From Planctomycetaceae bacterium (GTDB lineage Bacteria > Planctomycetota > Planctomycetia > Planctomycetales > Planctomycetaceae), in contig JADZEF010000314.1 of the NCBI GenBank assembly GCA_020850695.1, forward strand, positions 1-44,802: a stretch of DNA of 44,802 bases, written 5' to 3'. The translations under genes and the position numbers were made by a program. The notes beneath the pieces were generated by a model, which was given only the letters and a program-made list of their open reading frames with translations, was not told the origin of the DNA and did not search any database. Positions 1-36,904 of the stretch are shown here, piece after piece. Each line of letters opens with the position of its first letter. Within the stretch, counting starts at the first letter, position 1.

Positions 1-380
1 AAGACCCCGGCGAGCGGGACCGCCGCGTGATCCTGCCGGTGAAGAACAACCTGACGCAGACCCCGTCCGGCTACGCCTACCGCATCAAGGACGCGGTGGT
101 CACCTGGGAGATCGACCCGGTCGCCGTCACGGCCGACCAGTTCCACGCCTGGTGCGAAGCCAACACCCGCACCGAAGAAATCCTCGAAGGTCTGCGTCTC
201 CTCCTGCAACCCGGCCCCGTCCTCTACGCCGAAATCGAAAGCTGGGCGACCGAAAAGGGCTACCCGACGGCAACCCTCATCGAAGCGAAGCGCCGCCTGG
301 GCGCGACGACAACGAGAAACCCGGAAGGTCGAATGCTGTGGGAACTCCCCGCCGACGCAAGCGAAGGACAGAACGGCTGA
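1..380 (+). CDS. C-terminal part of a RepA-like AAA family ATPase (5' end outside window)
   Basis: The frame is open from the left edge (codons begin at base 3), so this is the C-terminal ~125 residues of a longer protein; the GTG at 27 is internal. The residues LPVKNNLT followed by SGYAYRI are, from memory, typical of the end of RepA-like AAA ATPases found next to primase-type genes on integrated elements. The last ~70 residues look like a small winged-helix domain (ILEGLRLLL, then YAEIESWATEKGY, then IEAKRRLG). Such ATPases are thought to act in replication of plasmids or integrated elements. The next gene at 456 follows on the same strand, fitting one mobile or prophage-like block. The family call rests on a short stretch and the ATPase core is not visible. 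Confidence 0.6.
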   Translation, partial: DPGERDRRVILPVKNNLTQTPSGYAYRIKDAVVTWEIDPVAVTADQFHAWCEANTRTEEILEGLRLLLQPGPVLYAEIESWATEKGYPTATLIEAKRRLGATTTRNPEGRMLWELPADASEGQNG

Positions 381-455
381 GCCACGCACATCGGCCCACG
401 CGAGCCATTGTCTTCATCCCCCCATCTCCCCCTCGCCCCATCCCCCCATCCTTGG

Positions 456-902
456 ATGATCGACCTCCAAAGCCTCGCCGACCTCCTGATCCGTGGCGCC
501 TCCCTCCAGATAGCGCTCGCGCAACTCGGCCGCACGCCGATCGACATCCTCGACGACGTCTCGCGTCCGGAGATCCAGGGCTTGCTGGTGTCGGTGCGTC
601 GGGTGCTGACGAACAACCTGACGGCCTCGCTCTACCGCCGCGCGATGGAAGGAAGCATCCCCGCCCTCACCTTCTGGCTGGCCCACTTCCCCGACTCCCC
701 GTTCCACCACCAGGGGGAAGGGTCGAAGGACCGCTACGCCACGATGAGCGATGCCGAGTTGATGGCTGAGGCCAAAGCCCTCGGCATGACCCTCGAAGAC
801 CTGACCGCCCCACTCCCCGGCGACAACCTCACGATCGCGAGCCCACCCGACCCCTTCGACTTTCCGGAAGAGTTTCCGGAACCCGGGGTGGAGCAGAAAT
901 AG
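456..902 (+). CDS. Hypothetical protein, terminase-small-subunit-like
   Basis: 148 residues, mostly helical with an acidic, proline-rich tail. The frame is also open from 408, but residues coded by 408-455 are proline/serine filler, so ATG 456 (MIDLQSLADL) is preferred. The stretch SLYRRAMEGSIPALTFWL resembles the helical region of some phage small terminase subunits and of unnamed proteins that follow RepA-like ATPases. That comparison is from memory and weak. The C-terminus (DFPEEFPEPGVEQK) matters because a close DNA copy of its coding sequence lies about 2.5 kb downstream at 3398-3428. It lies 76 bp after the ATPase on the same strand and may be co-transcribed with it. Function unknown. 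Confidence 0.55.
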   Translation: MIDLQSLADLLIRGASLQIALAQLGRTPIDILDDVSRPEIQGLLVSVRRVLTNNLTASLYRRAMEGSIPALTFWLAHFPDSPFHHQGEGSKDRYATMSDAELMAEAKALGMTLEDLTAPLPGDNLTIASPPDPFDFPEEFPEPGVEQK

Positions 903-1045
903 AGGCCGAAGCGCGAGCAAACACGAGGAGCGGATGACACTTATAATAGCCTTGGATCGCCAGTGCGTTTTTGCGAGCGTTCTCAACTGTCGGAATCGGA
1001 TTGCCAACCTAAGACAATCAGTTGCCACCCCTCCGATATCCCGAC

Positions 1046-1450
1046 TCAGGTTGATCTACGACTTCCCTTGCGCCTTGTTTGACCTTGCGCGTCGAGAATG
1101 ATCGCGTTGGACTTCATGGCCTTCAGTTGCTTTTCTGTTGGTTCACGCCCGTCGTGGTGGTTACCGTCAAATTTCGTGGGCTTGCTTGACTGATGGCGCA
1201 AAATCCGAGCTCTTGCGTGGACGGCGTTGAAGTCTCGCAACATCCGAACACATGACTCAACTGCCTGGATCGCGGCGAACAGATCTTGCTCGGTCGAATT
1301 CTCGCTCAACCGCTCAATACGCGCCGTGCAATCCGCCCATCGTTCCGGCAATACCTTTAGAATTCCGGGAATAACGACAGATGGATCGGCGTATGTTCGA
1401 CTCCTACGCTTGTTCTTTTTGCTTTTCTTGGCAATCTTCTTTTTACTCAT
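1046..1450 (-). CDS. Small basic hypothetical protein downstream of the Shedu gene
   Basis: 134 residues with a strongly basic N-terminus (MSKKKIAKKSKKNKRRSR), a helical middle (IERLSENSTEQDLFAAIQAVESC) and a second basic tail (GQTRRKGSRRST). ATG 1450 is preceded by AAGGAA at good distance. No family recognised; the charge suggests nucleic-acid binding, which is inference. It is on the same strand as the Shedu gene and starts 173 bp after it, so both may belong to one acquired block. Base composition here is visibly less GC-rich than in neighbouring housekeeping genes. Confidence 0.55.
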   Translation of the reverse strand: MSKKKIAKKSKKNKRRSRTYADPSVVIPGILKVLPERWADCTARIERLSENSTEQDLFAAIQAVESCVRMLRDFNAVHARARILRHQSSKPTKFDGNHHDGREPTEKQLKAMKSNAIILDAQGQTRRKGSRRST

Positions 1451-1623
1451 CTCACTATTTCCTTAGCGACATGAAAACGTCTTCAACACGCGGCAGTCTA
1501 AACAACGCGTCTTCATGCGACGGGTGGCACGCCCTGAGTCTTCGAAGGCCGTGATCGGAACGCTCGCTGGGCTCCAAGCATGTCGCTCGAAAACTCAGCG
1601 CCTGCCACCAGACCCGGCTTGCA

Positions 1624-3024
1624 TCACTGCGGATTCTCTCGTGTTAGTACGAACCCTTCTGGGATATAGTATGTTCTAGCGTTGCCGCCGACCCCGACGA
1701 GAGGGCCTAATAAGTTCTCAAGCACGGCCCTCGCATTGTCATAGACATCATCATACGTGTAGATACGCCTCGTCGGCACCTCCTTCTGTAATGCGACGAG
1801 CTTTCGACGATTTTCTTCCGTCAGTGTGCTGGAGCGACCAATAACGACGAGGCTGTTGGGGTTCGCTGTTATGCCCACCAAGCCTAGTTCGCTCTGCACC
1901 GTCTTCAGATTATCTTCGATGTACCGCTTCCAGTCTGTGATCTGCGAACACGCGTGGTTGAGATCGGCGGATTGGTCTCCACTCTTGATGAAGAGGGGAA
2001 GCGTTGAGCGTTCGATCTCTACGAGCAGGTACTCGCCGGTTGCCTCGCGGAACACAAAATCACTTGCTCTCGCCCCAAATGAAAGCTTTGACCACATTGC
2101 AACCTTGGTGGGACAGAGCAAATGCGGCTTGCTCTTGAGGAACTGGTGAAGTTCCTCTTCACGTTCAGGGTTTGAATCGAGGATGACTTTGAACTCATCC
2201 ATCTCGGCGGCGAATTTCCTCCTGGCTGCCGCTGATGGATCGAGCTCGGACAACTGCGATTCTTGATGTTGAAGGGCAGCAACGGAAGCGAGCAGATCCC
2301 TTTCCGCCCAGATCTCGGCGTAGTCCGGGTCCCATTGCTTCAGATCCGTGGTGGGGTAGATCTCAATGCAGTCCCACCCGACTGGAATCTTCATCCTAGA
2401 GTGCGAAATAAATGGCTGATCGCGGATGGTTTTTCCTCCGATGAGTTCGCCCTGAAGGAAGAACGAGACCTCACTTCGAATGGATGCGAGACGGAACGGC
2501 TTCCTCGGAGATGAAAGTGCAGCCTCGGGCGTTGTTGGTTCGACGTCGATAAGTAGCCTTGTACGAACGATTGTCTTGTGTTCGCCTGTAACGGGATTGT
2601 CTGACGACAACGTCAGTTCCACCCCATCGGCGTCGGTGCGCTCGCGAGATTGGCCTGGTGAAAGGAGTCGCACGACATTTTGGGACAGGAACTTCACACT
2701 ACTGGCAAGATTCTCGTCATTCCAAGTGCCGCCTACTGCAAATTCGTTGACCCGCGACTCGTATCGAATCACAACGCCATCAGCTGAGCAAAAAGCGATG
2801 GCACGGCCCGGCGAAACCAGATAGGTGGGCGCGAATTCCTTCAAATGTGAATACCGCGTCTGGACAAGAGTCTCTGACGCGATGAGGTAGGCTTTTACTG
2901 TCTGACCAACCGCACGGACGAGTGCTGCTTTTCCATCGTCTAGAGCCTCGAAGGCTTCACCTGTTTCGAGGATCTCTGCTGGTTTCTCGCCGTCTAGGTT
3001 CAAGAATGCTCGTTTTATAGCCAT
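1624..3024 (-). CDS. Shedu-type anti-phage defence protein (DUF4263, SduA-like)
   Basis: 466 residues. The C-terminal half carries the DUF4263 pattern: a helix with EEELHQFLKSKPHLL, then ASDFVF (Asp322), the strand YLLVEIERS (Glu336, Glu338), LFIKSGDQSADLNHA, and QITDWKRYI (Gln361). This order fits a PD-(D/E)xK nuclease fold; Shedu is an established single-gene anti-phage system built on it. The usual ExK lysine is Glu here (E-I-E), so catalysis cannot be assumed. The first ~200 residues, which in this family usually form the sensing part, match nothing I recognise. The frame opens with GTG 3030, but GAGGTGA at 3031-3037 is too close to it and sits 6 nt before ATG 3024, so ATG 3024 is chosen. 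The gene is AT-richer than its neighbours and lies in an accessory block, consistent with acquisition. Confidence 0.8.
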   Translation of the reverse strand: MAIKRAFLNLDGEKPAEILETGEAFEALDDGKAALVRAVGQTVKAYLIASETLVQTRYSHLKEFAPTYLVSPGRAIAFCSADGVVIRYESRVNEFAVGGTWNDENLASSVKFLSQNVVRLLSPGQSRERTDADGVELTLSSDNPVTGEHKTIVRTRLLIDVEPTTPEAALSSPRKPFRLASIRSEVSFFLQGELIGGKTIRDQPFISHSRMKIPVGWDCIEIYPTTDLKQWDPDYAEIWAERDLLASVAALQHQESQLSELDPSAAARRKFAAEMDEFKVILDSNPEREEELHQFLKSKPHLLCPTKVAMWSKLSFGARASDFVFREATGEYLLVEIERSTLPLFIKSGDQSADLNHACSQITDWKRYIEDNLKTVQSELGLVGITANPNSLVVIGRSSTLTEENRRKLVALQKEVPTRRIYTYDDVYDNARAVLENLLGPLVGVGGNARTYYIPEGFVLTRENPQ

Positions 3025-3129
3025 AACCACTCACCTCAGCGGCAATTCGTAGTCCCGCAGCCACCTTTGCTCGGGCGTCGTTCCATACTACAGCCTCGAG
3101 ACTGGAACAGACCAACGAAAGGATTCGCC

Positions 3130-3372
3130 ATGACGACTGGCTATTCGGCCCGCGTCGAGCTGACGCTGACGATCGGCGACGGCACTCACTCCCTGGGCGC
3201 TGTCGACCCCGACTCCATTCGCTTCCGCCATCCCCCGCACCTCCCGCCGTGCGAAGGAACGCTGACCGTCACGATCGACGGCCACCCGCACTCCACCCGC
3301 GTCTCCCTTCCCCGCGGATCATCCCCCACCGACAACGAAGCCCCCCTCCTCTGCCTCCCCGACGCCGCCTGA
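3130..3372 (+). CDS. Small hypothetical protein
   Basis: 80 residues with alternating short strands (YSARVELTLTIGDG, EGTLTVTIDGHPHSTRVSLP), suggesting a small beta-rich fold. ATG 3130 follows a good AAGG ribosome site (ACGAAAGG at 3115-3122); the upstream in-frame extension from 3067 has no support. It is divergent from the Shedu gene with about 100 bp between starts, so both promoters must lie in 3025-3129. No function can be assigned. Confidence 0.55.
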   Translation: MTTGYSARVELTLTIGDGTHSLGAVDPDSIRFRHPPHLPPCEGTLTVTIDGHPHSTRVSLPRGSSPTDNEAPLLCLPDAA

Positions 3373-3439
3373 CCCGCCTGACCCGCCAACCCGCCCCGAC
3401 TTTCCGGAAGACTTTCCGGACCCCGGAGTCGCCGATTAG
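3371..3439 (+). pseudogene. Remnant of a second copy of the 456-902 gene's 3' end
   Basis: In frame 2 this stretch reads DPPDPPTRPDFPEDFPDPGV and ends in TAG at 3437. That closely matches the end of the protein at 456-902 (PPDPFDFPEEFPEPGVEQK). At DNA level 3398-3428 matches 858-888 at 28 of 31 bases. No start codon or body of the gene precedes it in this frame. It looks like the surviving tail of a duplicated gene, or one half of a direct repeat around the block at 903-3397. Confidence 0.5.
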
Positions 3440-3973: not shown

Positions 3974-4045
3974 GCGGGTGTAGCTCAGTGGTAGAGCACC
4001 ACGTTGCCAACGTGGATGTCGTGGGTTCGAACCCCATCACCCGCT
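3974..4045 (+). tRNA. tRNA-Gly (anticodon GCC)
   Basis: A full cloverleaf can be drawn. The acceptor arms GCGGGTG (3974-3980) and CACCCGC (4038-4044) pair perfectly. The D arm has TAGCTCAGTGGTAGAGC. The anticodon arm is CCACG, loop TTGCCAA, CGTGG, with GCC at 4006-4008. The T arm contains GTGGGTTCGAACCCCAT. The 3' CCA is not encoded. A T-rich stretch (CTCTTTTCTATTTCTCC) just after the tRNA may act in termination. Confidence 0.97.
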
Positions 4046-4197
4046 CTTTTCTATTTCTCCGCCGCCGGTTTGCGTTCGTCCCTGCCCCGCTTCGTGTGCG
4101 GCAGGACGGCCGACCGCCCAACCGGTAGCGGTCCGATCGGGGTTGAGGGCGTTCGGATCACCTGAGGTGACGCACCCTCCGCCCGAAGGAGACGGTT

Positions 4198-5661
4198 GTG
4201 ACCTCTGCCACTGACGACGCTCAAACCGAAACCCCCGAAGCCGAAAAGCCCCGCGAGCTGAACCTCGGGGTGAAGGTGACCGACTCGGGCCCCTGCCGCA
4301 AGCACATCGCCATTACGGTACCGCGGGCCGATATCGACTGGTTCTACGAGCAGGAACTCGACGGCCTCATTGATAGTGCGGTCGTCCCCGGGTTCCGTGC
4401 GGGGCACGTCCCGCAGAAGCTCGTCGAGCGGCGGTTCAAGAAGGAACTCGGCGACCAGGTTCGCCAGAAGATCCTGGTGCAGAGCCTCGATCAGGTCGCC
4501 CGCGACCAGAAGATCGACCCGATCAACGAGCCCGAGATCGACGTCGAGAACCTCGTCATCCCCGAAGAAGGGGATTTCGAGTACGAGTTCTCGGTCGAAG
4601 TCCGCCCGCAGTTCGACCTGCCGAACTACAAGGGGCTGTCGATCAAGCGTCCCGTCCGCGACATTTCGGACGCCGACGTCGCCCGGGCCCAGGACCGCTT
4701 CCTGCTGCAGTACGGCACCCTGACCGAGCGGGAAGGGGCCGCCCAGGCCGGCGACTGGATCCAGATTTCCGGCGAATTCAAGCGCGAAGGCCGCCCGATC
4801 GGCTCGTTCCCGCGGACCGGCGTTCGCATCCTGCCGAAGCTCCGCTTCCAGGACGCCGAACTCGACGGCTTCGACAAGCTGATGGTCGGCGTCACGAAGG
4901 GGGAAACCCGCGAGACGCAGGTCGTCGTTTCGAGCGAAGCGACGAACCTCGAACTTCGCGGCGAGAAGGTCGATGTGACGTTCCACGTCCACGACGTGAT
5001 GGTCCGCAAGGTTCCCGAACTCGACACGCGGTTCCTGACGCGGTTGGGTTTTGAGTCGGAAGAGGAACTGAAGGACGCGGTGAAGAGCGCCCTGGAGCGG
5101 CAGCTGAAGCACGAGCAGCGTCAGTCGGCCCGCCGCCAGGTGGTCGAGCAGATCACTGAATCGGCGACGTGGGAGCTGCCGGAAGGGGCTGTGCGGCGGC
5201 AGGTCGAGAACGCGATGCGTCGAGACATTCTCGAAATGCAGCAGGCCGGCTACACGATGCAGGAAATTCGCTCGCGTGAAAACGCGTTGCGGCAGCAGGC
5301 CATCTCGTCGACCCGCCAGGCGCTGAAGGAGCACTTCGTGCTCGACAAGATCGCCACGGCCGAAGAGATTCAAGTCACCGATTCGGACCTCGAGCATGAG
5401 ATCCGCGTGATGGCCGAGCAGATGGGCGAGAACCCGCGCCGCGTGCGGGCCCGCATGCGTCGCTCGGGAATGATCGAGAACCTCGAGGCGGAAGTCCGCG
5501 AGCGGAAGGCGATCGACCTGATCTTCGACGCCGCGACCTACACCGACGTTCCGACGCCGGCCAAGCACGACGACGACACCGAAGCGGTCTCGGTCTCGGT
5601 GTGCGGCGACACGGCGGCCCCGGTCGCGGCGGAGTCGACGGAAGAAGGGGACGAGGAGTGA
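4198..5661 (+). CDS. tig: Trigger factor (ribosome-associated chaperone / peptidyl-prolyl isomerase)
   Basis: 487 residues, somewhat longer than the ~430 of the E. coli protein, with an acidic tail (ESTEEGDEE). The N-terminal ribosome-binding domain carries the signature GFRAGHVP at residues 65-72. A PPIase-like middle domain covers about residues 155-280 and the helical C-terminal substrate-binding arms follow. It binds at the ribosome exit tunnel and assists folding of nascent chains. The start is GTG 4198 with AAGGAGA just upstream. A 13-nt palindrome (TCACCTGAGGTGA, 4158-4170) lies upstream and could be an operator, though nothing else supports that. The usual clpP and clpX neighbours are absent; a terminator follows at 5694. 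Confidence 0.95.
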
Positions 5662-8076: not shown

Positions 8077-9108
8077 ATGACCACCGAACAGCCCACCCGT
8101 GACGATCTCGCCGCTGTCCAGAAGTGCGAGCAGGCCTACAACCGCATCCGCGACGAGCTCTCGAAGGTGATCGTCGGGCAGAGCGACGTCATCGAGCAGG
8201 TGCTGGTGGCGATCTTCGCCCGCGGGCACGCTCTCCTCGAAGGGGTCCCGGGGCTCGCCAAGACGCTGCTCGTCAGCTCGCTGGCGCAGTCGCTTCACCT
8301 GACGTTCAAGCGCATCCAGTTCACCCCCGACCTGATGCCGAGCGACGTCACTGGCACCGAAATCATTCAGGAAAACCTCGAAACGCGGGCCCGCGAGTAC
8401 AAGTTCCTCCCCGGCCCCATCATGGCCAACCTGGTGCTGGCGGATGAAATCAACCGCACCCCGCCCAAAACCCAGGCCGCCATGCTCGAAGCCATGCAGG
8501 AGCGGCAGATCTCGGCCGGCGGCAAGACCCACCGCCTCCCCGATCCATTCTTCATCCTCGCCACGCAGAACCCCCTCGAGCAGGAAGGAACCTACCCGCT
8601 TCCCGAAGCCCAGCTCGACCGCTTCCTGCTCTACATCAAGGTCGATTACCCCAGCGGGGCCGAAGAGTGGGAAATCGCCCGCCGCGTCACCACCGCCCAG
8701 ATGGGCAAGATCACCCCGGTGATGACCGAAGAGGAGATCATCACGATCCAGGACCTCGTGAAGCGAGTTCCCGTCAGTGACCAGGTCCTCGGCTATGCGT
8801 GGGCCCTCGTCCGCAGTTCGCGTCCGGGCACCAAGGAAGCCCTCGATTTCGTCAACCGCTGGGTCAGCTGGGGCGCCGGCCCTCGCGGCGTGCTGACGCT
8901 GGTGACGGCCGCCAAGGCCCGCGCCCTTCTCTACGGTCGCTACCACGCCACGGTCGGGGACATCCAGGCGGTCGCCCGCCCCGCCCTCCGGCACCGCATC
9001 GCAGGAAACTACGCCGCGCAGGCCGCCGGTGTGAACAGCGAGAAGATTATCGAAATGCTCATGGAAGATCTCCCGGCCGACCGCAAGTACGAAAAGCCCG
9101 CCGCGTGA
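8077..9108 (+). CDS. MoxR-family AAA+ ATPase
   Basis: 343 residues. Walker A is GVPGLAKT (56-63), Walker B is LVLADE (119-124), sensor 1 is in ATQNP (163-167), and GTYPLPEAQLDRF (171-183) is the family hallmark. The lid domain has GAGPRGVLTLVTAAKARAL. MoxR ATPases act as chaperones that help assemble or activate partner proteins, usually VWA-domain proteins encoded beside them with a DUF58 gene. No such partner follows here: the next gene is a small antitoxin-like protein. ATG 8077 has no clear ribosome site but matches the family's usual start region. Confidence 0.93.
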   Translation: MTTEQPTRDDLAAVQKCEQAYNRIRDELSKVIVGQSDVIEQVLVAIFARGHALLEGVPGLAKTLLVSSLAQSLHLTFKRIQFTPDLMPSDVTGTEIIQENLETRAREYKFLPGPIMANLVLADEINRTPPKTQAAMLEAMQERQISAGGKTHRLPDPFFILATQNPLEQEGTYPLPEAQLDRFLLYIKVDYPSGAEEWEIARRVTTAQMGKITPVMTEEEIITIQDLVKRVPVSDQVLGYAWALVRSSRPGTKEALDFVNRWVSWGAGPRGVLTLVTAAKARALLYGRYHATVGDIQAVARPALRHRIAGNYAAQAAGVNSEKIIEMLMEDLPADRKYEKPAA

Positions 9109-17877: not shown

Positions 17878-20685
17878 TTACGGCTTCGCGACGCTCCGCT
17901 CGGCCTTCACACGGAACAGGACGGGAACGGATGCCTGGTTCCCTTCGGACCGGCAGATGGCGTAGACCAGCCGCGTCGTCTCGGGAACCCAGTCGCGGGC
18001 CGAGATGAAGATGCGGCGCTCGGTCTGCCCCGGCAGCAGCGTGATGCCGTTGAGTCCGAGGTCGTCGACAATGACGCCGTGCGGGAGATTGTCGACGTCG
18101 AACCGCAGGTCGCCCGCCGCTCCGTTGCGCTCGATCCGCACGAAGGCCGACGTCTGCCGACCCGGCGTGACGACGATCTCGACGACCGGTTGGCCATCGA
18201 TTGCTCCAGTTCGTGCAGCGGGATCGAGTTCAAGCCGCACCAGGACTTTCGGCTTGTCCGCCAGCTTGATCTCGCCGAGGTTGCCGAGATCTTTTGTGAC
18301 GGGCTTCCCGGCGACGGTCGCCGTCGCGCGGACCTTCACCGCATCCCACGCTTCTTTGGGAGGTGCGGAGGCCTCGGCCGTGACATTGAGCACGCCGCGG
18401 GCTTCGACCTGGGTTCCCTGAATGACAACGGGCGTTGCGGCGCTGAAGCCGGGGGGCAGTCCTTCGATGTCCAGTGTCACGTCGCCATCGAAGCCATCGA
18501 CGCGATCGACGGTGAATGTCAGCCGCTGCCCGCTCCCTTTGCCAACGGTCGCCCCCTTGCCGCCGATGCTCACGTTGAAGTCAGGGCGCGGCCGCCGGAT
18601 CGACAGCGAGTAGACATACTCCTTGCCGCCGAAACCGCGAACGTCGGTCACCTGGACGTAGTAGACGCCGTCGGCCGGCGCAGTGAACGTCAGCCTGGAG
18701 TCGCTGCCGAGCTTGCGCTCGCTGTCGTCGTCGTTTTCGTAAAGGAGCGGAAAGACGGGGAGCCCATTGTCGACGAGCGGCGTGCCTGGCGGGTACGCCT
18801 CGACGATGTAGCACGGATCATCCATGGCGTGGACGGTCGGGTTGGTGTCGAACCAGGTCCGGCGCTTGCCGCCGATGGCATAGAACCAGAATCCCGAGTC
18901 GGGTCCTTCCGGCATCCGATGAAACTTTCCCACTTCGCCGTTCATGTAGAGGAACTGGTTGATCTCCATCTCTTCCCAGTTCTTGACCCGCACCTGTTCC
19001 TGGGACGAGTCGATGGGGCGGAACTCGATCATCGAAGCCCGTACCGCCTGCAGCAGGTGGCGGAGCACCGGCTTGCCGGCGGCGTCGAGCATGGCAAGCC
19101 GCGTGTCGGCCGGAGAGTTGCGGCGGGCGGCGTTCGTCTCGAGGATCCAGACCTCGCCCTTCTTCGCCTCGAAACGGTAGAGGTCGACATCGGCGTTCTT
19201 GCCGTCCGCCGATTGAAGAACTCCCTGGGCGACCGCGGGCGCCGCGAGCGGAGTGGACTGCGCGATGGAGTTGTTGGGTTCGGCTTCGGGAGTCTCTGGA
19301 AGCTTGTCGGCAGGAGTGTCGAGCGGCGTCTCGGGCACGATTGTCTTGAGAATGGGCGATGCCTGCTGCGCGGTGAGGACGCCCATGTCGACCAGCGAGA
19401 GTCGTTCGAGGCTTCCGTCGAGTCGACCGATCAGGGCGGTCTGTCGATCGGGCGAGAGCGCCAGAGCGGACGGCCAGTCGGCCTGCCCCTTGGAGACACG
19501 CTGCGGGGTGAAGGTGGCGGTCTCCCAGAACTTCACCGACCGATCCTCGCCGGACGTCAGCAGGAGCTTGCCGTCAAGCGAAAAGACGATCTTGAGAATC
19601 GGCCCTTCGTGGGCGAACCGCGAATAGATCAGCGGGTTGGTCCCTTCCTTGCCCCCCTGCGTCAGCTCCCACACCCGCAACCGGTTGTCGACTCCACCCC
19701 CCAGCACATACCGCCCGTCGGGAGTGAAGGCGACGGCGTACTGCTCCTTCTCGGGCTGGCCGAGCGTGTCGAGCCGCGTCCCCGTCGCGACATCCCAAAG
19801 TTTAATCGTCCGGTCACTCCCCGCACTGGCCAACAGTTTGCCGGAAGCATGAAAAGTGAGATCGTTGATCGCTCCGTTGTGCCCGTCGAGGTCCCGAAGC
19901 GGCTTGAGCGTCTTGAGGTCCCACACCGTGATCCGCTGGTCATAGCTGCCCGTGGCCAGCAATGTCCCATCCGGGCTGAGATCGATGGCGTCGATGCTGT
20001 CGCGATGACCCCGGAGCGTGCCGGCACGCTCCCACGTCGCGGTATTCCACAGCGTGACTTCGCCCGACAGCCCCGTCTCTCCCGCAGCCACCGCCAGCAG
20101 CTTGCCGTCGCGCGAGACCGCGAGATCGTTGACGCGCCCTGTGTGGCCTTCGAGCACCTTCAACGTCTTTCCGTCGGATGATTGGATCTCGACCGTTCCG
20201 TAACGTCCGATCGCAACAAAACTGTTCGTTGGCGACCAGGAGGCCGCATGAATCGCCCGCCTGACGTTCCCTTTCACCGCCACCTTCGGCGTCACGAGAG
20301 TCGGCGCAGAGGCAATCCCTTTCGACGGCTTCGCTCCCGCCTTGATCCATGCCCGCAACACGCCGATCTCTTCCGCCGACGGACCCTTGCTCCCTTCCGG
20401 AGGCATGAAGGGCTCCGCCTTGCGCTCGACCAGCCGCACCAGCAGACTCTTGTCCGGATCGCCCGCGACAATCGGCGCGCCGTGCTCGCCCCCCTTCATC
20501 AGCCGCTCATAGCCGTCCAGGACGAACTCGCCGTTCGCCTCCTTGGCGTCATGGCACGCCAGGCAGTATTTCTGCAGCAGCGGTGCGACGTGAGTGGCGA
20601 AGTCCGGCGGCGCCTCGGCAGCGTCCGCACCGACAGTGACCAGCACCACAACGACTGACGCAAACATCCCGTTCCGCATCTTCAT
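17878..20685 (-). CDS. Exported PSCyt1-type cytochrome c fused to WD40 propeller and PPC-like domains
   Basis: About 935 residues. A signal peptide (MFASVVVVLVTVGADA) is followed by a planctomycete cytochrome C domain with one haem site, CLACH, near residue 43 and a likely distal Met in EPFMPP. A WD40 beta-propeller covers about 125-435 (repeated GH...LAVS.DG...LA..G....VTLWN). Two PPC-like beta domains follow (AEPNNSIAQSTPL; RLTFTAPADGVYYVQVTDVR). Large exported planctomycete proteins of this type are common and their substrates mostly unknown. The frame opens at 20691, but GAGGTGA at 20692-20698 touches that ATG and is well spaced for ATG 20685. The peptidase gene upstream on the same strand ends 38 bp before this start, so they may be co-transcribed. 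Confidence 0.9.
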   Translation of the reverse strand: MKMRNGMFASVVVVLVTVGADAAEAPPDFATHVAPLLQKYCLACHDAKEANGEFVLDGYERLMKGGEHGAPIVAGDPDKSLLVRLVERKAEPFMPPEGSKGPSAEEIGVLRAWIKAGAKPSKGIASAPTLVTPKVAVKGNVRRAIHAASWSPTNSFVAIGRYGTVEIQSSDGKTLKVLEGHTGRVNDLAVSRDGKLLAVAAGETGLSGEVTLWNTATWERAGTLRGHRDSIDAIDLSPDGTLLATGSYDQRITVWDLKTLKPLRDLDGHNGAINDLTFHASGKLLASAGSDRTIKLWDVATGTRLDTLGQPEKEQYAVAFTPDGRYVLGGGVDNRLRVWELTQGGKEGTNPLIYSRFAHEGPILKIVFSLDGKLLLTSGEDRSVKFWETATFTPQRVSKGQADWPSALALSPDRQTALIGRLDGSLERLSLVDMGVLTAQQASPILKTIVPETPLDTPADKLPETPEAEPNNSIAQSTPLAAPAVAQGVLQSADGKNADVDLYRFEAKKGEVWILETNAARRNSPADTRLAMLDAAGKPVLRHLLQAVRASMIEFRPIDSSQEQVRVKNWEEMEINQFLYMNGEVGKFHRMPEGPDSGFWFYAIGGKRRTWFDTNPTVHAMDDPCYIVEAYPPGTPLVDNGLPVFPLLYENDDDSERKLGSDSRLTFTAPADGVYYVQVTDVRGFGGKEYVYSLSIRRPRPDFNVSIGGKGATVGKGSGQRLTFTVDRVDGFDGDVTLDIEGLPPGFSAATPVVIQGTQVEARGVLNVTAEASAPPKEAWDAVKVRATATVAGKPVTKDLGNLGEIKLADKPKVLVRLELDPAARTGAIDGQPVVEIVVTPGRQTSAFVRIERNGAAGDLRFDVDNLPHGVIVDDLGLNGITLLPGQTERRIFISARDWVPETTRLVYAICRSEGNQASVPVLFRVKAERSVAKP

Positions 20686-20723
20686 CGGCATTCACCTCGC
20701 GCTGCAGTGTGCGGGACGATCCA

Positions 20724-23472: not shown

Positions 23473-23523
23473 CAGTCGATGAACGCCGCCCGGTCCATGA
23501 GGCCGGACGGCGTTCACTGTTTC
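23473..23523. terminator. Strong hairpin between convergent genes, probable bidirectional terminator
   Basis: CAGT and GAACGCCGCCCGG pair with CCGGACGGCGTTC and ACTG around a short loop (GTCCATGAGG region), with one mismatch. A short T run (CTGTTTCG) follows on the plus strand. It lies 40 bp after the WD40 stop and 49 bp before the DUF1501 stop. Confidence 0.7.
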
Positions 23524-23571
23524 GTCGAAGCGATCGACGTGCCGGAGTGCTCTGTCACACGGTCGCATTCT

Positions 23572-25041
23572 TCACGCGATGATGTCGTGCACGACGCGGC
23601 CGTGGACGTCGGTCAGACGGAAGTCGCGGCCGGCGTAGCGGAACGTCAGACGCTCGTGGTCGAGCCCCAGCAGGTGCAGCAGCGTCGCGTGCAGGTCGTG
23701 CATGTGGACTTTGTTGATCACCGCATGATGCCCGAACTCATCCGTCTCGCCGTACTGGAATCCCGCCTTCACCCCGCCGCCAGCCAGCAACACGCTGAAC
23801 CCGTCCGGGTTGTGATCGCGGCCTGTGCCGTTCTTCTCCGCATAGGGCGTGCGGCCGAACTCGCCGCCGAACCACACCAGCGTGTCTTCCAGCAATCCGC
23901 GCTGCTTGAGGTCGGCGATCAGCGCCGCCGCGGGACGATCGACATTGAACGCGTGCTCGGCGTGCTTGGGCAGATTCGAATGCTGGTCCCACGCGGGATT
24001 GGCCGAGTTGTCTCCGTAGTTGACCTGAACGTACCGCACGCCCGATTCAAGCAGCCGCCGCGCCATCAGGCACTGACGTCCAAAACTGTCGGTCCCCTTC
24101 TCGCCGATGCCATAAGACTTCTGCGTCTCCTTCGATTCCTGCGAGAGGTCGAGGATGCCGGGGGCGGTATTCTGCATGCGGAAAGCGAGCTCATACGAAT
24201 CAATGACGGCGTCGAGCTCGGGGTCTGCGGCATGAGCTGCGGTCTGACCGCGATTCAGTTCCTGGAGAAGCTCAAACTGACGCCGCTGCTCTGCGGTGCT
24301 GAGCCGCTCGTTGGTCAGGTTGCGGATCCGGGCTTCCGATGCCGGGATGCCGGCCCGGCCGATGGTCGTCCCCTGGTAGACGGTGGGCAGGAATGCGTTG
24401 CTCCAGTTGCGCGGTCCCCCGTTTCCCATCGACGGACAGATCGACACGAAGCCGGGCAGGTTCTGGTTCTCGGTTCCGAGCCCGTACTGCACCCACGCCC
24501 CCACCGACGGCCGCACCAGATTGATGGCCCCTGTGTGCATGAAAAGCGTGGCAGGACCGTGGGCGATCCCTTCGGTGTACATCGATCGGACGAGACACAA
24601 ATCGTCCGCGTGATTCTGAATGTGCGGGAAGAGTTCGGACCCCCACATTCCCGACTCGCCGTGCTGCCGGAACTTCCACGGCGACTTCATGACGCGGTGC
24701 TCGATCACCTTCCGCGTCTTGGCGAGGGTGCGGGCATCGTCGAACGTCCGCATCTTCCCGTCGTGTTCGACCATCGCCGGCTTGTAGTCGAACGTATCGA
24801 CGTGGCTGGGTCCCCCCTGCATGAAGAGGAAAACCACGCGCTTGGCCCGCGCGGGAAAATGCGTGGGACGCGGGGCGAGCGGGTCGGCGTTGACCGCTGC
24901 GGGGTTTGCCGCCCCGGCATCATCGGCCCCGCGCGCCAGCCCGGCGAGCGCCAGCATTCCAAACCCGCACGAAGTGGACTGCAGGAAGTGACGGCGAGTC
25001 GCCGAATCCCTGAACCAATGCTTGGAATCCATCGGGAACAT
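23572..25041 (-). CDS. DUF1501 family Tat-exported protein
   Basis: About 489 residues. A Tat signal (TRRHFLQSTSCGFGMLALAG) is followed by the family's alkaline-phosphatase-like core: RVVFLFMQGGPSHVDTFDYK, GAWVQYGLGTENQNLPGFVS, LVWFGGEFGRTPYAE, GRDHNPDGFS. Function unestablished. Planctomycetes usually encode these beside a PSD1/DUF1549-DUF1553 cytochrome-type protein, which is missing here. The frame opens with GTG 25056, abutting the upstream stop codon. ATG 25041 and ATG 25032 are alternatives, and none has a strong ribosome site. The upstream neighbour on the same strand is the HEPN gene. Confidence 0.9.
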   Translation of the reverse strand: MFPMDSKHWFRDSATRRHFLQSTSCGFGMLALAGLARGADDAGAANPAAVNADPLAPRPTHFPARAKRVVFLFMQGGPSHVDTFDYKPAMVEHDGKMRTFDDARTLAKTRKVIEHRVMKSPWKFRQHGESGMWGSELFPHIQNHADDLCLVRSMYTEGIAHGPATLFMHTGAINLVRPSVGAWVQYGLGTENQNLPGFVSICPSMGNGGPRNWSNAFLPTVYQGTTIGRAGIPASEARIRNLTNERLSTAEQRRQFELLQELNRGQTAAHAADPELDAVIDSYELAFRMQNTAPGILDLSQESKETQKSYGIGEKGTDSFGRQCLMARRLLESGVRYVQVNYGDNSANPAWDQHSNLPKHAEHAFNVDRPAAALIADLKQRGLLEDTLVWFGGEFGRTPYAEKNGTGRDHNPDGFSVLLAGGGVKAGFQYGETDEFGHHAVINKVHMHDLHATLLHLLGLDHERLTFRYAGRDFRLTDVHGRVVHDIIA

Positions 25042-25056
25042 GGGACGGCAATCCAC

Positions 25057-25467
25057 TTAGTTTGGAAGGGCTGCGATCGCGGCCGATCGACGAGAGGCGT
25101 CCGCCTCAATATCGGCCAGCAGTCGGAGCGAATCATGAACGGCAGAGACACTGTGGGCGCCGCGATGCACCCAAGGTGTCGTCGACAGGTTGTTCAGATC
25201 ATAGGAGGCCTGGTTGCGGGCTCTCACCAGCGTGTCCAGAGTCCCTCCGATCGCAATCAGATCGGCAACCGAAGCATAAGCGAATTGAAGTCGAACCCAC
25301 GCATGGACATTCTGCCGCGGTGGAACGGATCGACCCCAGCGTCCCAGCGCGTCACGACATTCGAGCATCAAGGCATAGTAAGCATGGATGACCGCCGCCC
25401 GCCAGTACGCTTCGCTCGGGCCGGATGCCAGACTTCGGGCGACGTCGAGAAAAGCCGAGCCGCGCAT
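25057..25467 (-). CDS. HEPN-domain-like protein (possible toxin)
   Basis: 136 residues, nearly all helical: FLDVARSLASG, then YWRAAVIHAYYALMLECRDA, then LDTLVRARNQASYDLNN. The HEPN fold pattern is an early helix with AYYA, then a late helix with R-x4-(H/Y). Here Arg84-Asn-Gln-Ala-Ser-Tyr89 occupies that place, with Tyr instead of the ribonuclease His. HEPN proteins are often RNA-cleaving toxins or their inactive relatives. ATG 25467 starts 2 nt after the stop of the gene at 25470-25784, so the pair is tightly coupled. Whether it is toxic is inference. Confidence 0.65.
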   Translation of the reverse strand: MRGSAFLDVARSLASGPSEAYWRAAVIHAYYALMLECRDALGRWGRSVPPRQNVHAWVRLQFAYASVADLIAIGGTLDTLVRARNQASYDLNNLSTTPWVHRGAHSVSAVHDSLRLLADIEADASRRSAAIAALPN

Positions 25468-25469
25468 TC

Positions 25470-25784
25470 TCAGCCTTTCGTCGCCGTCAGAAACCCGAAA
25501 TGGCGGGCCACCTCAGCAGGAAACGTTCGAAACTTCCAGGCGTTCCAATCGGACTCCGTCCGGTCGTCGGGAGAAAGCGGGATATCGCGATGCCCAGTGA
25601 TCAACACAATCGCTCCGTCATCCGTGTCATAGGACGGGTCGACGGTCACTCCGATCTTCGTCAGGTCTCGCACAGAATCGGCCGTATGTTCCATCATGCG
25701 ATCGAACTCATCGCGCAATCCGAGTTCGGCGATCAGTTCGTTCGCGTCGGCCGAGATTCTGATGGGAACGGTCGTCACCGCCAT
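25470..25784 (-). CDS. Small partner of the HEPN protein, unknown family
   Basis: 104 residues from ATG 25784, with GGAG in range; the upstream GTG 25799 has no ribosome site of its own. A helical N-terminal part (ANELIAELGLRDEFDRMMEH) is followed by a strand (KIGVTVDP, then AIVLITGH) and a Trp/Phe-rich end (WNAWKFRTFPAEVARHFGFL). It is the first gene of a two-gene unit with the HEPN gene. From memory, similar pairs recur in planctomycete genomes. An antitoxin role is inferred from arrangement only. Confidence 0.55.
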   Translation of the reverse strand: MAVTTVPIRISADANELIAELGLRDEFDRMMEHTADSVRDLTKIGVTVDPSYDTDDGAIVLITGHRDIPLSPDDRTESDWNAWKFRTFPAEVARHFGFLTATKG

Positions 25785-35338: not shown

Positions 35339-35374
35339 ATGAGGGACCTTCAACTGCGGCCGAAACGCACATCG

Positions 35375-36730
35375 TCAACCCGCCTTAGTGCGAATAGTCA
35401 TCATCAGCCCGCCCTTCGGCCGGATGGCGAGCAGCGGCTCGGGGACGACGGGTTCGGTTCGCGGGACCGCTTCAAGCCGGAATCGCTGCAGCGTCGTGGC
35501 GACGATCAGCGACATCTCGGCCAGAGCGAGCCCCTGGCCGATGCAGATGTGCGGGCCAGCGCCGAAGGGGATCCAGCTGTATTGCGGGATCGAGCTGATC
35601 CGCTCTTCGGAGAAGCGGTCGGGGTCGAAGCGGAGCGGGTCGGGAAAGAACCGCGGATCGCGCTGCGTGACCCACGGAAGGATGTAGATCCACGTCCCTT
35701 TCGGAAGCTGGAAGTTTCCGAGTTCGATGTCCTCGACCGTCTGCCGCACGAACAGGATCCAGACGGGCGGATACAGCCGGAGCGATTCGCGAATGACGCA
35801 GTCGGTGTATTTGAGCTTGGGAAGATCTTCGGCCGTGGCGGGGCGGTCGCCGAGGACTGTTGCCACTTCCTCGCGCAATCGTCGCTCAACTTCGGGATGG
35901 GTGGAGATGAGGTGCCACGCCCATGCGAGCCCCGCGGCGGACGAATCGTGTCCGGCGTTGAACATCGTGATGGCTTCGTCGCGGGCCTGCTGGTCGGACA
36001 TCCCGCGGCCGTCCCCTTCCTCGTCGACCGCCATCAGCAGCATCGAGAGGAGGTCCCCCTTGTCTTGGCCCGAGGCCCGCCGTTCGCGGATTGTGTTCCG
36101 CATGAGGGTGTCGAGCGTGCGGATGGCCCACCGCTTGCGGCGCTTGGTGCGCGTGGGCACCCAGTCGGGCACCTTGATGAGCGTCGAAAGCTCGGCGGCG
36201 AAGATCTCCGAGAGTGTCCGCACCGCCTCGCCCATCTCGGACGCCTGCCCCGTCAGTTCGAGGTCGTAGAACAGCTTGGCGATGATCTCGAGAGTGAGGT
36301 GCGTCATCTCGTCAACGATGTTCCGCGTCTCGCCCGGCTTCCAGCGATCGAGAAACTGCGTCGTCCGCTCGACGATGGTCGCGGCATACTTGCCGAGCCG
36401 CCGCGGATGAAAGGCGGGTTGCAGAAGTCGACGCTGCCGCAGCCAGAAATCCCCTTCCGTCACGACAAGCCCTTCGCCGTCGATCTGACGCAGCGCATTG
36501 AGCGTTCGCGGTTCCTTGCGGAAGAACCGCGCCCGCGTCACCAGCACCTCGCGAATCAGATCGGGGTTGTTGCACAGACACGCCTTCACCGGCCCCATCC
36601 GCAGCCCCGCGAGGTCGCCGTAGGTCCGCGAGACCTCGGTCAGGAATCCGAGCGGGTCGCGGGAGAACTCCCGCGCGAGGGACATGCCGAAGAACGATCC
36701 CGTCGGGCCGGAGGGAAAGTGACGTGTCAA
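35375..36730 (-). CDS. Cytochrome P450
   Basis: 451 residues. The C-helix motif is WLRQRRLLQPAFHP (97-110). The I-helix AGHDSS (259-264) has Ser where Thr is usual. ExxR is ESLR (315-318). The haem loop is FGAGPHICIGQ with Cys396. It should be a soluble monooxygenase using electrons from a ferredoxin or similar; no redox partner is encoded nearby. The start is TTG 36730: the residues FPSGPTGSFFG before the first internal ATG (36685) match a normal P450 N-terminus, and a stop lies in frame upstream. Substrate unknown. Confidence 0.95.
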   Translation of the reverse strand: MTRHFPSGPTGSFFGMSLAREFSRDPLGFLTEVSRTYGDLAGLRMGPVKACLCNNPDLIREVLVTRARFFRKEPRTLNALRQIDGEGLVVTEGDFWLRQRRLLQPAFHPRRLGKYAATIVERTTQFLDRWKPGETRNIVDEMTHLTLEIIAKLFYDLELTGQASEMGEAVRTLSEIFAAELSTLIKVPDWVPTRTKRRKRWAIRTLDTLMRNTIRERRASGQDKGDLLSMLLMAVDEEGDGRGMSDQQARDEAITMFNAGHDSSAAGLAWAWHLISTHPEVERRLREEVATVLGDRPATAEDLPKLKYTDCVIRESLRLYPPVWILFVRQTVEDIELGNFQLPKGTWIYILPWVTQRDPRFFPDPLRFDPDRFSEERISSIPQYSWIPFGAGPHICIGQGLALAEMSLIVATTLQRFRLEAVPRTEPVVPEPLLAIRPKGGLMMTIRTKAG

Positions 36731-36904
36731 GGGAGGAACGCTCCGAAGGGTCGCCGGTCGTCGTCAATCAACAAAGAGGCCCATCACCAGGGATAAACGA
36801 ACGACCCCCCTGTCGAACCATTCCCGAACTCGGGAAATCGAGCCATTCTCTCGTGCAAACCATCGTTGATCCGGGGAATCGCTCACTTCGGGCCACTCTT
36901 GCAA

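What the first reader, a model, noticed from the sequence alone, without database searches (positions are those of the whole stretch)
1624..3024. Shedu-type defence gene in an accessory block
The C-terminal half has the DUF4263 order of residues (DF, VEIE, SGDQSADLNHA, QITDWKRYI). The gene is AT-richer than its neighbours and is flanked by an unknown basic protein and remnants of a mobile-type gene set. The N-terminal ~200 residues do not match a known sensor domain, so this may be a new architecture within Shedu.
Basis: partly seen in the sequence, partly recalled or inferred. Interest (0 to 1): 0.55.

Follow-up and report, generated by a model that had tools for sequence, protein, structure and literature searches.

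The report
Shedu-family gene with unfamiliar N-terminal half
A horizontally acquired bacterial gene that very probably makes a Shedu-type antiphage DNA-cutting protein, with an N-terminal half that no reference library recognised and an altered active-site residue, sitting in an interchangeable accessory block; it extends a known defence family rather than founding a new one.

Summary
Window 1624-3024 (minus strand) is an intact 466-aa gene whose C-terminal half is a Shedu domain: Pfam SduA_C 69.4 bits against a cut-off of 27, 19 PADLOC SduA models, and a predicted PD-(D/E)XK core aligning to E. coli and B. cereus SduA at VIA Z 13.0 and 12.7. Residues 1-230 match nothing in Pfam, NCBIfam or the PDB, but recur in three relatives in Planctomycetota and Chloroflexota (27-31% identity, against 52-62% in the nuclease): a conserved, fast-evolving domain, probably the sensor. 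Shedu proteins are known for diverse N-terminal domains, so 'new architecture' holds only in that sense.

New here: the canonical catalytic lysine of ExK is glutamate (E336-x-E338) in all four relatives. Of 24 SduA_C genes in a planctomycete sample, 9 are ExE and all 9 carry Q-x-x-D-W in the next helix; the other 15 are ExK or DxK, 13 with Q-x-x-x-Y and 2 uncovered.

The gene is foreign (GC3 0.59 against 0.75-0.87), behind a phage-type primase. A second copy of its flanks, on contig C180, carries a GmrSD/DUF262-type gene instead. Defence activity is untested.

The parts
1624..3024 (-). SduA (Shedu-family) gene, 466 aa
1705..2163 (-). C-terminal PD-(D/E)XK-type domain (residues 288-440) with D322, E336-x-E338, Q361-x-x-D364-W365
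   Evidence: Pfam SduA_C residues 288-427; predicted fold aligns 8ps4, 8ti9; residue columns
2164..2334 (-). helical linker, residues 231-287, predicted two long helices
2335..3024 (-). N-terminal domain, residues 1-230, unrecognised, conserved in three relatives; presumed sensor
   Evidence: model confidence too low to read the fold
1046..1450 (-). 134-aa lysine/arginine-rich orphan ORF downstream of sduA on the same strand; within the swapped insert
   Evidence: found in 1 of 199 genomes, its own
921..3111 (.). inserted block (GC 0.534 against 0.634 for the rest of the window to its right) absent from the second copy of the flanks
27..380 (+). C-terminal piece of a primase/helicase-like gene cut by the contig end
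   Evidence: 98% identical DNA on C180; that copy hits AAA_25 and phrog_239
408..902 (+). 164-aa ORF of the carrier, unknown; its C-terminus is translated repeat
858..880 (+). left copy of the dispersed 23-base hairpin repeat
3398..3420 (+). right copy of the same repeat, same orientation
3130..3372 (+). 80-aa ORF of the carrier, whose DNA recurs on C180, C4 and C291

Best explanation
The gene encodes a single-protein Shedu-type defence nuclease acquired horizontally inside an accessory block. The C-terminal domain folds as a PD-(D/E)XK nuclease core and most likely forms a Shedu-like oligomer. The N-terminal 230 residues, joined by a long helical linker, most likely act as the sensor or clamp that keeps the nuclease off until it meets a phage-specific cue; DNA ends are the cue in E. 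coli SduA. Once released, the nuclease would nick or cut phage DNA. Shown here: family membership by profile, predicted nuclease fold, conserved separate N-terminal domain, foreign composition, swapped block. Inferred: oligomerisation, sensing, DNA cutting, defence. The ExE site implies that catalysis, if present, works without the canonical lysine, as recalled for BamHI.
For: SduA_C 69.4 bits over a cut-off of 27; 19 PADLOC SduA models, 13 at E <= 0.001. All four N-terminal-sharing proteins hit SduA_C and the same top PADLOC model. Model residues about 262-441 align to E. coli SduA 8ps4 (Z 13.0, rmsd 3.8, 178 aligned) and B. cereus 8ti9 (Z 12.7, rmsd 3.8, 168 aligned), well above the first non-Shedu row at 8.7. 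The N-terminal domain is conserved but diverges faster (27-31% against 52-62%), as expected of a sensor. D322, E336, E338, Q361, D364, W365 are invariant in 4 of 4. GC3 0.589. The same flanks carry a GmrSD_N gene on C180.
Against: The catalytic lysine position is glutamate, and K557A abolished defence in V. cholerae SduA (PMC12137116 passage), so nuclease activity is not assured. The N-terminal fold is unresolved (pLDDT mostly under 50 outside residues 31-90), and the model dips to 48-57 at residues 311-330, which hold D322. None of four searches of viral contigs and phage records found a relative. No other defence gene was identified inside the window itself, though only some window ORFs were scanned.
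Confidence: 0.66

Rival explanations
1. The ExE branch is a nuclease-dead or altered Shedu offshoot: the domain binds DNA ends or a partner and blocks the invader by binding or signalling rather than cutting.
For: Canonical Lys is Glu in all four relatives and in 9 of 24 sampled genes, each with Q-x-x-D-W; the Lys is needed in VcSduA.
Against: D322, both glutamates and the DW motif are invariant across two phyla, which a dead site would not need; ExE is, from memory, the active site of BamHI.
Confidence: 0.2
2. A two-gene system: SduA with the downstream basic 134-aa protein as DNA-binding or regulatory partner.
For: Same strand, 173 bases downstream, within the same foreign low-GC insert.
Against: The basic ORF was found in 1 of 199 phylum genomes, its own, and no similar ORF is seen beside the relatives in L002 or L003 by eye.
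Confidence: 0.08
3. A nuclease serving the mobile element itself (competition with other elements, or processing of its own DNA) rather than phage defence of the host.
For: It lies between pieces of a primase-type replication module.
Against: Relatives in L002 and L036 lie beside housekeeping genes; the block is variable cargo relative to the module.
Confidence: 0.12

Closest known systems
Shedu (SduA), type I: E. coli SduA (PDB 8ps4/8ps5) and B. cereus SduA (8ti8/8ti9)
   Same: C-terminal PD-(D/E)XK core behind a helical linker and a separate N-terminal domain
   Different: No significant sequence-level hit to the PDB; N-terminal half unrelated by sequence; ExE in place of ExK
VcSduA, type I-D Shedu with GHKL ATPase N-terminus (PMC12137116, passages read)
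   Same: Single protein, DUF4263 domain at the C-terminus behind a different N-terminal domain
   Different: No GHKL or other enzyme domain recognised here; VcSduA needs K557, this protein has Glu at the lysine of its motif
Short planctomycete SduA_C proteins of the ExE/Q-x-x-D-W kind (L014, L017, L018, L019)
   Same: Same active-site signature
   Different: Open frames of 203-236 aa, too short to hold the N-terminal domain
GmrSD_N/DUF262 gene in the equivalent block on contig C180
   Same: Same carrier flanks in the same genome
   Different: Different cargo family

Membership tests
SduA_C / DUF4263 protein family (Pfam PF14082) | Profile score over the curated cut-off | tested here: met
   69.4 bits against 27; three relatives also over it
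SduA_C / DUF4263 protein family (Pfam PF14082) | PD-(D/E)XK core fold | tested here: met
   Predicted model, pLDDT about 70-88 for most blocks of residues 271-440 with a dip to 48-57 at 311-330; Foldseek 8ti9_B E 2.9e-6, VIA Z 13.0 with 8ps4. A prediction, not a structure.
Shedu nucleases of the characterised ExK kind | D...ExK active site with the catalytic lysine | tested here: not met
   E336-I-E338; Glu at the lysine column in 4 of 4 relatives. Not filed under this subgroup.
Shedu defence system (type I) | N-terminal regulatory domain ahead of the nuclease | tested here: inconclusive
   A separate conserved 230-residue domain exists, but its regulatory role is inferred and its fold unresolved
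Shedu defence system (type I) | Tetramer or higher assembly, DNA-end cleavage | not testable with these tools
   Needs biochemistry
Shedu defence system (type I) | Protects against phage | not testable with these tools
   Needs plaque assays
Shedu type I-D (enzymatic N-terminus) | GHKL ATPase or other enzyme domain at the N-terminus | tested here: inconclusive
   No Pfam or NCBIfam hit in residues 1-230; profile search only

The most novel reading that the evidence does not exclude
The gene belongs to a separate Shedu branch with an ExE/Q-x-x-D-W active site whose catalysis differs from the characterised ExK enzymes; its N-terminal 230 residues are a sensor fold not yet described; and in this genome repeat-bounded blocks behind a primase-type module exchange whole defence genes.
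Probability: 0.25. Interest if true: 0.55.

Novelty: new variant of a known kind. Interest (0 to 1): 0.36.

Why it matters
It gives Shedu a conserved N-terminal domain with no recognised relative. It also marks a clean two-way split of the nuclease core (ExE with Q-x-x-D-W against ExK with Q-x-x-x-Y) that can be tested with single substitutions. If the ExE branch cuts DNA, the catalytic model drawn from E. coli, B. cereus and V. cholerae SduA does not cover the whole family. If it does not, many genes labelled Shedu may defend in another way. The swapped block also suggests how a genome can refresh its defence genes at a repeat-flanked site.

Tried and rejected
Phage or prophage origin of sduA: tblastn against 50,697 phage records gave no match and three scans of viral contigs gave no relative. 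Plasmid relatives: 6 records, all only over residues about 257-433 at 31-34% identity, none covering 80% of the query.

N-terminal fold: AlphaFold on three rows gave mean pLDDT 48, on four rows 59. Weak PDB sequence hits of its profile (E 0.27 and 0.99) were taken as chance, as was the one hit of the full profile (E 0.97).

Apparent 718-aa relative L036 with a 257-residue extension: rejected as a fusion, because the extra frame runs back through a tRNA-Leu gene; the ATG used gives 491 aa.

Repeat as an integron site: set aside. The copies can form hairpins (z -1.5 and -2.7; 15 and 2 of 200 shuffles fold as well, so the first is weak). On contig C119 two inverted copies lie beside a fragment resembling a REP-associated transposase (33.4 bits, below its cut-off of 80, 35 residues), so a REP element is the better reading.

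Common genomic neighbourhood near tig/clpX in 3 of 4 relatives: noted, not explained. Sigma-70 promoter scan: nothing found.

Literature: the two primary Shedu structure papers are not held. Searches for Shedu/SduA/DUF4263, sensor domains, Planctomycetes and REP transposase listed no paper whose title or shown abstract start mentions the ExE branch. That is no proof that it is unpublished.

Full report
The ORF at 1624-3024 lies on the minus strand and is intact, 466 aa. It scores 69.4 bits with Pfam SduA_C (cut-off 27, residues 288-427) and hits 19 PADLOC SduA models at E up to 10, best 95 bits, of which 13 are at E <= 0.001. No NCBIfam family is hit at E up to 10 and no PDB sequence by phmmer. 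It is the only SduA_C match in its genome.

Fold. On a four-row alignment (A3) AlphaFold gives mean pLDDT 59.3, with most blocks of residues 271-440 between 70 and 88, a dip to 48-57 at 311-330, and the N-terminal half mostly low. Foldseek's best matches are B. cereus Shedu nuclease chains (E 2.9e-6). VIA puts E. coli SduA 8ps4 at Z 13.0 (rmsd 3.8, 178 aligned) and 8ti9 at 12.7 (rmsd 3.8, 168 aligned), above N.BspD6I at 8.7. So a PD-(D/E)XK core is supported as a prediction.

N-terminal half. Residues 1-230 match nothing recognisable. Three proteins share it over its length: L002, a Planctomycetota MAG (45% overall); L003, a Chloroflexi MAG (43%); and L036, from a genome in the same phylum as L003 (37%). 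Identity to the window protein is 27-31% in this domain against 52-62% in the nuclease. It is rare: its profile rings in 1 of 392 genomes of the window's phylum, the own genome, while SduA_C is found in 21 of those 392. The full-length profile hits 4 of 301 genomes of the Chloroflexi MAG's phylum, of which 2 cover the N-terminal domain. In two order-level searches only the starting genomes carry the full protein: 1 of 18 and 1 of 151; in the first a second genome matches over the nuclease part only.

Active site. All four proteins have D322, E336 and E338 where the characterised enzymes have D and ExK. I read the alignment of the phylum sample by eye. The 25 matches are 24 genes, as two matches are halves of one. 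Nine are ExE (the window gene, L014, L016, L017, L018, L019, L021, L024/L033, L031), 14 are ExK and one is DxK (L020). All 9 ExE genes have Q-x-x-D-W in the following helix. Of the other 15, 13 have Q-x-x-x-Y and 2 (L026, L027) are not covered there. Cautions: the profile used for this alignment was built from sequences resembling the window protein, so remote members are less well aligned; and 4 of the 25 matches lie below the Pfam cut-off. That BamHI has ExE is recalled, not from a call. K557A abolishes defence by V. cholerae SduA (PMC12137116, passages read).

Surroundings. The block 921-3111 has GC 0.534 against 0.634 for the rest of the window to its right, and sduA GC3 is 0.589 against 0.75-0.87 for the eight genes measured outside the insert. 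The DNA to its left and right recurs in the same genome. On contig C180, window 1-343 (98%), 778-920 (93%) and 3112-3253 (96%) recur in the same order, with about 2.3 kb of other DNA in place of 921-3111. That DNA encodes a GmrSD_N protein (68.3 bits; best PADLOC model NsnA 98.9 bits) and a 198-aa protein with at most a sub-threshold nucleotidyltransferase hit. The right flank also recurs on C4 and C291; the ORFs listed beside those copies did not look like defence genes by eye and were not scanned. So 2 of 4 copies of the right flank adjoin defence-type cargo.

Carrier. The left flank is the end of a gene whose fuller copy, cut off at the end of contig C119, is a toprim-AAA_25 protein (AAA_25 122 bits over its cut-off; toprim hits below theirs). 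The C180 piece matches phage primase/helicase families (phrog_239, E 3.3e-10). C119's end stops at position 8834 of the reversed C180 stretch and the window's start begins at 8853, so C119 and this contig are probably neighbours; this is an inference. A 23-base hairpin repeat lies at 858 and 3398 in the same orientation. The genome has 13 such sites at up to 2 mismatches against 0 for the reversed control.

Mechanism. The best reading is a one-gene Shedu-type nuclease whose N-terminal domain senses an infection cue and releases the nuclease. For E. coli SduA, DNA-end binding by an N-terminal clamp and nicking at a fixed distance are described in a review (PMC12904381, passages read). A second paper states that Shedu is a shared nuclease with diverse N-terminal domains (PMC12137116, passages read). 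The primary papers were not held. Sensing, assembly, cutting and protection are inferred here.

Verdict. It is a member of the SduA_C family, in an ExE sub-branch that does not meet the canonical-lysine feature, with an unrecognised N-terminal domain. It is a new variant of a known kind, of moderate interest.

Noticed in passing
L057 (contig C180) 607-2231: In the same carrier flanks a GmrSD_N/DUF262 gene plus a 198-aa protein, possibly a nucleotidyltransferase, replaces sduA.
   Followed up: partly
window 4198-5661 and tRNA-Gly 3974-4046; L036; L003: Three of four relatives lie beside tig or clpX: the window gene near tRNA-Gly and tig, L036 between tRNA-Leu and tig-clpP-clpX, L003 beside clpX. 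The arrangements differ; unexplained.
   Followed up: partly
window 858-880 and 3398-3420; L073 2297-2416; L074 7767-7886: Dispersed hairpin repeat, 13 sites in the genome; two contigs carry inverted pairs, one beside a REP-transposase-like fragment.
   Followed up: partly
window 410-453 and 1521-1575: Two other short repeats recur many times across the genome.
   Followed up: no
window 17878-20691: Planctomycete cytochrome C (PSCyt1) domain fused to WD40 repeats, which fits a planctomycete host.
   Followed up: no
window 23479-25632 and 35339-36796: Large ORFs (717 and 485 aa) with no Pfam hit at E <= 0.001.
   Followed up: no
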